DNA of 64,000 nucleotides from Sphaerolaimus hirsutus (Eukaryota; Nematoda; Chromadorea; Monhysterida; Sphaerolaimidae), in the NCBI GenBank assembly GCA_964036195.1, contig OZ038460.1, positions 4,467,504-4,531,503 on the forward strand, written 5' to 3'. A program made the translations under genes and the position numbers. Positions 3,201-6,200 of the stretch are shown here, piece by piece. Position 1 is the first letter of the stretch, and every line of letters starts with the position of its first letter. Under the pieces are notes generated by a model. The model saw only the letters and a list, made by a program, of their open reading frames with translations. It made no database searches and was not told the origin of the DNA.

Positions 3201-6200
3201 AATTCATATAAAGAAAATAAAGAATGAAAAGAATATACCGTATGACCCACAGTCTGAGAGAGCTTATGAAAAATAAACCCCCGTCGAAATACCCCCAAAT
3301 CTGTGTGAAGAGAATGTAATTGCCAAAAACTGCTGTTTATGATCTGTGTAATGCATATCACACGCTAAAAGAATGACCGAGTTACATTTTTGATTTTGAC
3401 CGTTGCATTTTTCTATGTCTGCGAACGTAACAAACAACGAATAAGTGCCGTGAGGTCAAAAAATTCTGGCTTAAAAATACCCCCCTCACAATTTGCACTC
3501 TGAAAATATAAACCCCCTGGGGGCACTCCGAGGAAATACGGTACCTATATACACAAACCTCGACAAACTGCAGGCCGGAGAACCACAAAAGGCGGGACTC
3601 TGAATCTTCCACAAACATGCCGTACTGAGGATGGAGCAACTCCTGAAAAAGCAGCATGAAAAATTCTTTGCGCACGCCGCCCACATCATCGGCTTCCTCG
3701 CCGACGAATTTTATCTGAAAAAAAAAAAAACTGATGTCCAAAATGAACTGATCCTAAAGGCCATAGCGTAACACGGTTTATATGGCAGCCTAGAAAAAAA
3801 TGGTACAAGAAGTGTACGGAAGGTATACCGTATCGAATATGGAACAGTTTCCATTTAGGGGATACAGCGCTAGTTGACATCCCGAATTTGTGTCAACTGA
3901 ATGTCAACTAAATAACAGAAAAAATTTCTTGAAGCATGACACTTAACATAACAATAAAATACAATATAAATATCACTATGGAAACTGAAATTACATCATT
4001 AACCAAACTTTAATTGAATTTAGTTGACACTCATTTTGATGTGGTGTGGGCCCTCTGATAAAGGAAATTTTTATCAATTTAAAACAATCAAAATCGTTTT
4101 CCCCACCACCTTCAAAGGTCTCTTCAAAAGCGCCGGCTCAGTACGCAACAACTGCACGGCCGTGTCATCGACAACATGCGTCCGGCGCACTTGCAACAGC
4201 AAAAACGGGTTGATCTAGGGGCAGTCCCAGACCCTGTAAAATGCCCTGTAAAATGTCGATGTCACGCAAAGTGTCAAAAGTCATGGAAAATGCCCTGCAA
4301 AATGGCAACCCGGTTGCCATTTTGCAGGGCATTTTCCCTGACTTTTGACACTTTGCGTGACATTTGACATTTCACAGGGCATTTTTCAGGGTCCGGGACT
4401 GGCACCTGATTAGCGAACGGCACGAAAACCGTGTTCAAATTGTGCAAATGTAAATTGGTCGCGAGCGCCTCTCGCTGCAGCTGCGCGTCCAGAGATAACA
4501 AGATCGATTTCGACTCGCCGTCGAAAATGAACGGATAGCGGCAAAGTACAAAAGCGTCCGTGTTGTTCCAGTCGTCCAGCGACTGCGGATGGGGTAGGAT
4601 GCATTTGCATATGCAAAAGTGAATTTGCAAGGTTATAAGCGTGGCTTCTAAAACGTCATTTTGTGTTGATCGATAGCAGGGACGTATCCAGGATTTCTGG
4701 GGGGCGGGAAGGATTGTATACGGATCCCGTCGAACGGGGGAAGGGGCGCCATGAATTACGCCATGGCAGAAATGGCGCTGGCGCCAATGCCTACTATATG
4801 CGTAACTATTTTTGCCACAATATTAGGGACGAGAAAACGACCCTGTTTTTAACAGCAACCGTACAAGTTTTCCATTGTAAATCGACACTTTCGCTGGATG
4901 TAAAAAGAAACCGCCTCCGTAGTTTTTCATGTCCCTTAAATAAAAACAACTCATCAAAATTCTCGAACATTTTTCAACGCACCTGTTTCTGTAAGTAAAG
5001 AGCGTAATCCAATTGCAGATTTATTCTCTGCTTGATTTCAGGCACGTAAAATAATTCGTATGGGATTTTTCTGGTCGGCTGGTTGACTCTATTCAAGACT
5101 CCCAAAAGCCGCAGACATCGGCACAGTTGATGAGATTCTTGCGCGTTCTGTGTGTAAAAATATGTTTGTGATTTGTAAAAGTGATATAATAATGCATAAA
5201 TATGTTCACATTTTACAGTGACATTTTACGTTTACAGTTCACAGCGAGATGTCCCGTATTTTTGGAACGAAGCGCACAAATTCAGCAATGGAAGATACGA
5301 CGAAAAAAGCCGACCATTATGATATCAAGATTTCGGTTCAATAAATATTCTACTGAAATCTGTTTAATTGTCTAGCAATGTGCCAGCATGAGAAACCCGT
5401 AATATTTCAAATTGTGTGCACTGATTGAAACTGACTGCAGACCAGGTTACCCCCCCCCCCGCGGTGCCACTCACGGACCGTGTAAAATATCAAACGCCAT
5501 GCAAAGTGTCAAATTTCATGTAGATGAAAAATACGTTTGCCATTATCCAGGGCATTTTACATGACTTTTGATACTTTCCATGACATTTTACATTACACAA
5601 AGTGCGAGACCGCTCCCTGAAGAACAAAAACGCCCCCCCCCCCAACCCACGGGCCGTCTCTCGGGAGTCAACTTGCTCACAATCTCCTGCACCAAGCGTC
5701 TATAAACTCGAATCATTCGAGCCATTTGGCGCGCTTCCGCTCGGGCCCACCAGCCGTGCAAAACATCTGCCGCCGCTGCGTATAGGCCTAGGACAGCCTC
5801 GGCGTAGGGCACTTGGAGCCTGGGGGTTTGTTTGAGGGGGGGGGTGAGGGTTGGTGAAGCGTGAAGAGTGTGAAGGAAGGTGTGATGGGATTGTGGTGAA
5901 ATGGGAGAAATGATTTGTGTTTTTTTTTAGTTTGGAATTTGTCTTGGCCCTGGCATGTTATACTTATCACCAATATGACTATTGGATGTTTATATTTTTC
6001 GACAAACACTATAAAAAGTTATTTTCACGACTACATTAAATTTTTTCCGAATTTTATGTCAACACTCTCTATTTCTCACCAAAACACTACAATCGACAAC
6101 CGACAAACCACCCAACTTCCAAAGACCTTTCAAAAACGCACTTGTCGCACTGGGCGGGGTCAGCGAAGGCCGCCGCCCAGGGCACAATCAAATACCACCG

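What the first reader, a model, noticed from the sequence alone, without database searches (positions are those of the whole stretch)
4215..4405. A whole spliceosomal intron is one near-perfect transposon-like hairpin (introner candidate)
HERC intron 15 consists from first to last base of an inverted repeat with about 92-base arms and a 3-base centre. The element's own ends supply the donor (CAG|GTGCCAGTCCC) and the acceptor (GACTGCCCCTAG|). Sequence relatives lie elsewhere in the window outside exons. This is what is expected of introners, transposons that create new introns. The flanks TCAG and CTAG agree only in AG, so the insertion may be old or the duplication decayed.
Basis: partly seen in the sequence, partly recalled or inferred. 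Interest (0 to 1): 0.92.

Follow-up and report, generated by a model that had tools for sequence, protein, structure and literature searches.

The report
Transposon hairpin that makes new introns
One intron of an animal gene is, from end to end, a small jumping DNA hairpin whose relatives sit inside many other genes of the same genome, apparently making new introns where they land; some carry an end that normal splicing should not accept.

Summary
Window 4215-4405 (minus strand) is a near-perfect foldback; removing it joins two exons of a HECT-type gene in frame. It is one copy of a 189-bp MITE: its 5' tip occurs 4,207 times in the genome (2236 after AG, 1971 after TG). Ends are GTGCC...GCCCC inside a 3-bp target duplication, CAG or CTG; 29 of the 40 best copies have identical duplications. 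Inserted at CAG, the tip gives the donor and the right duplicate the AG acceptor, so the mRNA stays unchanged. In 27 of 29 copies with coding signal on both sides the frame agrees across the empty site. Protein matches cross the junction in trypsin, GRK2, Kir channel, SDR, PAQR, attractin and OSCP1 genes. Of 20 top-40 copies with a strand call, 19 lie with GT on the coding strand. This is an introner family in an unnamed animal. Unexpected: CTG copies, which offer GT...TG, also sit in conserved exons in that orientation, so TG acceptors may be used, or those genes are broken. An in-order sample of 30 copies shows far fewer coding sites. No RNA or orthologue gene structures were available: splicing is inferred, not shown.

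The parts
4215..4405 (-). Putative intron: element plus right target duplicate; donor GT at 4405-4404, acceptor AG at 4216-4215
4218..4405 (-). MITE copy proper (188 nt, 4.8% from the 189-nt consensus)
4406..4408 (-). Left target duplicate, CAG on the minus strand
4215..4217 (-). Right target duplicate, TAG on the minus strand (one change from CAG); supplies the acceptor AG
4406..4582 (-). Upstream exon, ...[10 protein letters not shown]; its own acceptor CCGCAG lies at 4583-4588
   Evidence: boundary read by eye
4110..4214 (-). Downstream exon, [17 protein letters not shown]...; donor GT at 4109-4108
   Evidence: boundary read by eye
61321..61481 (-). Second copy in the window with both tips and a CAG..CAG duplication; context not established
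9699..9890 (+). Decayed copy (no duplication left) inside another intron of the same gene, antisense to the gene and not the whole intron
   Evidence: intron limits by eye
5464..5600 (+). Decayed copy near an exon of the same gene
6507..6532 (-). Single end of the element
41488..41668 (-). Decayed copy
55147..55331 (.). Decayed copy

Best explanation
It is an introner: a non-autonomous DNA transposon (MITE) that turns coding sequence into exon-intron-exon when it lands. Steps: (1) a transposase, not looked for successfully here, opens a CWG site with a 3-base stagger and inserts the 189-bp hairpin, duplicating CAG or CTG (duplication shown from the copies; enzyme inferred). (2) The element is a near-perfect palindrome except for its last four bases; its 5' tip GTGC is a 5' splice site preceded by the left CAG (sequence shown, use inferred). 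(3) In CAG insertions the right duplicate supplies the acceptor AG, so element plus duplicate is removed exactly and the mRNA is unchanged (frame shown, splicing inferred). (4) The stem of about 90 pairs holds the ends together and hides the internal ACAG 19 bases before the end (inferred). (5) CTG insertions offer GT...TG; they are probably spliced poorly at TG until the right T becomes A (weakly supported).
For: 3-bp duplication: 29 of 40 identical (one of these, L031, lacks an intact 5' tip and is doubtful), 39 of 40 begin GT, 26 of 40 begin GT and end AG. Tip counts 2236 (AG) and 1971 (TG), reversed controls 0. Frame agreement 27 of 29, P 2.5e-11 against one third. Pfam matches that cross the junction with equal spans in protein and profile: trypsin L003, Patched L009 (three residues past it; the related sterol-sensing match five), IRK L010, adh_short L018, attractin L019, OSCP1 L062; with a one-residue difference HlyIII L027 and LRR_6 L052. 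Alignments seen and ungapped: GRK2 2-98 to 454-550 (L039), Kir2.2 3-82 to 117-196 (L010). Codon-model strand calls in the top 40: CAG-left 10 sense, 0 antisense, 12 unclear or low of 22; CTG-left 9 sense, 0 antisense, 8 unclear or low of 17; the CAT copy antisense.
Against: No RNA and no orthologue gene structure. The top 40 were chosen by likeness to this intron. In the 30 AG copies taken in order along contig C1 only 7 passed the coding threshold: 2 sense, 3 antisense (two of them one duplicated locus), 2 unclear. L020 is called antisense, and L075 reads as coding on the antisense strand by eye (no Pfam match). Ten of 40 copies have CTG..CTG and no AG acceptor at the end.
Confidence: 0.88

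Rival explanations
1. The element landed in, or replaced, an older intron and by chance its ends coincide with the splice sites.
For: Some copies do lie inside introns (9699-9890), and two top-40 copies may sit at an exon edge (L029, L037).
Against: Coincidence of both ends with exon sequence recurs in unrelated genes, with matches crossing the junction.
Confidence: 0.05
2. The intron spreads as RNA by reverse splicing, not as DNA.
For: CAG copies are GT...AG units in AG|GT-like sites.
Against: The last three bases follow the target: CAG with CAG (18), CTG with CTG (10, L031 doubtful), CAT with CAT (1) of 40. A reverse-spliced intron would bring its own AG.
Confidence: 0.02
3. Exonic copies, CTG ones above all, are recent harmful insertions that break genes or one allele; nothing is spliced at TG.
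For: In human genes TG acceptors were found only as alternatives beside an AG (PMC2374985, passages). Antisense exonic copies seem to exist (L075; L020).
Against: CTG-left copies with a strand call are sense 9 to 0 in the top 40 (five of these nine are CTG..CTG without doubt of the right end, L010, L018, L019, L022, L028, plus L037 at an exon edge), not expected if both orientations were equally useless. The Kir exon reads on intact around its insert.
Confidence: 0.5
4. Orientation bias comes from insertion into transcribed DNA, not from selection for splicing.
For: Sense bias occurs with both CAG and CTG.
Against: A palindrome with four asymmetric bases gives a transposase little to orient by; one antisense copy lies in an intron of this gene (9699-9890).
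Confidence: 0.1

Closest known systems
Introners of protists, fungi and some animals (Gozashti et al. 2022, PMC9860276; abstract, passages and sections 7 and 9 read)
   Same: Non-autonomous element that is the whole intron; in many families inverted repeats and target duplications; mostly no change of mRNA length; one layout carries one splice site and takes the other from the duplication
   Different: Here 3-bp CWG duplications, a near-complete palindrome, and nearly half of the insertions (TG type) lack an AG acceptor. [quoted passage not shown] copepods are named in the passages I saw
NuwaI transposons of the PHIS superfamily (PIF/Harbinger, ISL2EU, Spy and others; PMC4482050, passages)
   Same: CWG target duplications, mainly in animals
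   Different: Defined through their transposase; none was searched for here. No mention of introns in the passages seen
Amoebophrya introner elements (PMC7789003, passages)
   Same: Hairpin introns with short direct repeats; many non-canonical splice sites
   Different: A dinoflagellate with widely varying boundaries, whereas here boundaries follow one rule, GT plus CWG
Non-canonical introns of Fritillaria borealis (PMC13326754; outline, abstract, passages)
   Same: An animal in which splice-site rules are relaxed
   Different: [quoted passage not shown] here the few neighbouring introns of the gene that I read by eye are GT-AG

Membership tests
Introner | Element sequence makes up the whole intron | tested here: met
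   Window intron; 26 of 40 best copies begin GT and end AG at the duplication
Introner | Many similar copies at unrelated exonic positions | tested here: met
   Trypsin, GRK2, PAQR, Kir, SDR, attractin, OSCP1 genes
Introner | Splicing seen in RNA | not testable with these tools
   No RNA data
Introner | Intron absent at the site in relatives | not testable with these tools
   No relatives of G000 are held; best HGD relative listed is 70% identical
MITE (non-autonomous cut-and-paste DNA transposon) | Inverted repeats, short, no coding capacity | tested here: met
   189-nt consensus pairs along its length except the last four bases and a 3-base loop; stops in all three sense frames of the window copy
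MITE (non-autonomous cut-and-paste DNA transposon) | Fixed-length target duplication | tested here: met
   3 bp; 29 of 40 identical, L031 doubtful
NuwaI / PHIS superfamily | CWG target duplication | tested here: met
   CAG or CTG on the left in 39 of 40
NuwaI / PHIS superfamily | DDE transposase with matching ends | not tested
   Planned family search was never sent
U2 intron with GT-AG ends | GT donor and AG acceptor | tested here: met
   Met for the window intron and CAG copies; not met by CTG..CTG copies, 10 of 40

The most novel reading that the evidence does not exclude
An introner family that makes two kinds of intron depending on one base of its target: CAG gives GT...AG, CTG gives GT...TG. 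The TG kind is spliced at TG as the only in-frame acceptor, helped by the stem and by the ACAG 19 bases upstream, and then drifts to AG by a T-to-A change in the right duplicate. An animal genome would thus hold hundreds of GT-TG introns in working genes.
Probability: 0.35. Interest if true: 0.88.

Novelty: new variant of a known kind. Interest (0 to 1): 0.74.

Why it matters
How introns arise is an old question, and introners are a main known source of bursts of new introns, but few animals are known to have them. A family with 4,207 matches of its intact tip (elements with the tip at both ends count twice), and with 39 best copies only 3-9% from their consensus, gives a natural experiment: target CAG against CTG, sense against antisense, same hairpin. 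It would let one measure what a new intron needs to be tolerated and whether TG can serve as an acceptor.

Tried and rejected
Reverse splicing was rejected because the end follows the target. An excess of CTG..CAG over CAG..CTG, as a sign of selection for AG, is not established: top 40 has 4 against 1, further copies in fetched loci about 2 against 3, sorted by eye from the list. Nine TG-type copies were taken because of a CCCGG variant (all nine with it among the 100 places listed): four end in CAG by eye and score higher on the sense strand (L077 and L078 clearly, L073 and L076 by about 3 bits); L071 is CTG..CTG and leans sense; L075 is CTG..CTG and reads antisense by eye; L079 is CTG..CTG with low scores; L072 has ATG on the left; in L074 no right end was found. 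Pfam found nothing above its cut-offs in 7 proteins from that set; L078 matches OCT1 weakly, E 6e-4. UNC45 (L022) and SMYD (L054) were guesses by eye; PDB gave no match. Pfam gave nothing above cut-off for the HERC junction, L033 or GRK2 pieces; PDB did for HERC and GRK2. In one search, 8 of 10 pieces had no match. The HGD search gave no close species. Paper searches with other terms gave nothing useful.

Full report
What is there. The window is contig C16, 4467504-4531503, of an unnamed 348-Mb genome in 762 contigs. A gene with RCC1-like and HECT-like exons runs on the minus strand (by eye). Between exons 4406-4582 and 4110-4214 (limits by eye) lies 4215-4405, a foldback far beyond chance: -103.5 kcal/mol against -27.9 +/- 3.8 in 200 shuffles. 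All three frames have stops inside it, and without it the protein reads on in frame and matches E6AP across the join, E 7e-20, the nearest gap a few residues upstream. Pfam gave no match above cut-off for the short piece.

The family. A genome search with the 191 bases gave 2183 first candidates, of which 40 were scored; identities of the full-length matches other than itself are about 90-94%. I fetched all 40. The consensus of 39 (L031 left out) is 189 nt, copies 2.6-9.0% from it; it pairs with itself except for the last four bases at each end, 5' GTGC and 3' CCCC, and a 3-base loop. The left and right three bases are CAG/CAG 18, CTG/CTG 10, CTG/CAG 4, CAG/TAG 3, and one each of CTG/CGG, CTG/TAG, CTG/CCG, CAG/CTG, CAT/CAT. 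For 11 copies I set the right end by hand within one or two bases, because the run of C varies; L031 is counted in CTG/CTG though its 5' tip is not intact. So the element duplicates a 3-bp CWG target. The pattern AGGTGCCNNTCCCNGACCCTG occurs 2236 times and the TG form 1971 times; reversed controls gave 0. These are matches, not copies: an element with this tip at both ends counts twice. The similar numbers fit a symmetric CWG target.

Where the copies are. With element and one duplicate removed, the flanks often read as one protein. Pfam matches that cross the junction, with equal spans in protein and profile: trypsin in L003, Patched in L009 (only three residues past it; sterol-sensing five), IRK in L010, adh_short in L018, attractin in L019, OSCP1 in L062; with a one-residue difference HlyIII in L027 and LRR_6 in L052. 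Spans only are shown there, not alignments. PDB alignments, seen and ungapped: GRK2 for L039, Kir2.2 for L010. In the top 40 I gave Pfam 20 joined pieces (19 sense, 1 antisense), then 10 antisense and 10 sense pieces of unclear copies: 29 of 87 sense and 11 of 71 antisense junction frames listed, so the test is partial and was led by eye. No antisense piece gave a match above its cut-off. Matches in L029 and L037 start at the junction, so these may be at exon edges; an EGF match in L036 crosses it but is below cut-off.

Strand and frame. A codon model trained on exons of the window gene and on homology-supported exons of these loci, each copy scored without its own exon, gave in the top 40: CAG-left 10 sense, 0 antisense, 2 unclear, 10 low of 22; CTG-left 9 sense, 0 antisense, 1 unclear, 7 low of 17; the CAT copy antisense. 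The threshold of 20 bits lies just below the 95th percentile (22.1) of 800 random places, whose scoring was slightly different; no control was run for itself. Over 70 copies (top 40 plus 30), where both sides scored at least 8 bits, the best frames agreed in 27 of 29; duplicated loci were not merged. Results that weaken the picture: of 30 AG copies taken in order on C1 only 7 reached the threshold, 2 sense, 3 antisense (L064 and L065 are one duplicated locus), 2 unclear; of 10 sense pieces from this set given to Pfam, 2 matched. By eye several more read through in the sense frame. So the whole family is a mixture, and the subfamily nearest this intron is the one found in exons. The number of introner introns is not measured; hundreds is my inference.

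How it works. Because CAG is both the target and the acceptor, a sense insertion at CAG gives CAG|GT...CAG| and leaves the mRNA as before. The end following the target (CAG, CTG, CAT) shows DNA insertion and speaks against reverse splicing. The element brings the donor; the duplication brings the acceptor, a layout known for other introners (PMC9860276, legend of Fig. 2). CWG duplications fit the NuwaI group of PHIS transposons (PMC4482050, passages), but no transposase was searched for.

The CTG copies. Sense insertions at CTG have no AG at the end, yet L009, L010, L018 and L019 sit in conserved exons with matches across the junction. Human TG acceptors were found only beside an AG, with a limit of 28 nt (PMC2374985, passages); here ACAG lies 19 nt before the end, inside the stem. 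Either TG is used, or these genes carry broken copies. Copies with CTG left and CAG right (L014, L017, L027, L034; by eye also L073, L076, L077, L078) could be CTG introns improved by a T-to-A change, but such mismatches occur in both directions in other copies, so selection is only suggested.

The intron in the window. It is a CAG insertion, 4.8% from consensus, with one change in the right duplicate (TAG), still AG. It is best read as a recently gained intron; recency is inferred from the low divergence. A spliced hairpin intron of 190 nt would also resemble a long mirtron or hairpin RNA; this is a thought from general knowledge, not tested.

Literature. Searches for introner papers listed no title or abstract that I could match to this family in the held library; the species is unknown, so an existing report cannot be excluded.

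Noticed in passing
17300-26868, minus: Long reading frames of a BEL/Pao-like LTR retrotransposon with an envelope-like frame (names by eye)
   Followed up: no
3872-4030, 8960-9215, 12125-12320: Another foldback family with GTCAACTAAAT-like ends lies inside introns of the same gene (by eye)
   Followed up: no
about 31500-34650, minus: Homogentisate 1,2-dioxygenase gene in several exons; best listed relatives about 70% identical, so the species and close kin seem to lack annotated proteins in the database
   Followed up: partly
L041, L045 ends: Some family members have GTGCC-like tips at both ends, or intermediate ones; the asymmetric tip may be derived
   Followed up: no
L029 centre: A copy may have landed on the CAG of an existing acceptor, lengthening an intron without changing the protein
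   Followed up: no
L023/L024, L063/L066, L064/L065: Pairs of copies share their flanks, pointing to duplicated loci
   Followed up: no
28502, 40561, 43841; 48200-58400: AAAACGTTTTTT repeats and GAACC/GGTTC arrays
   Followed up: no
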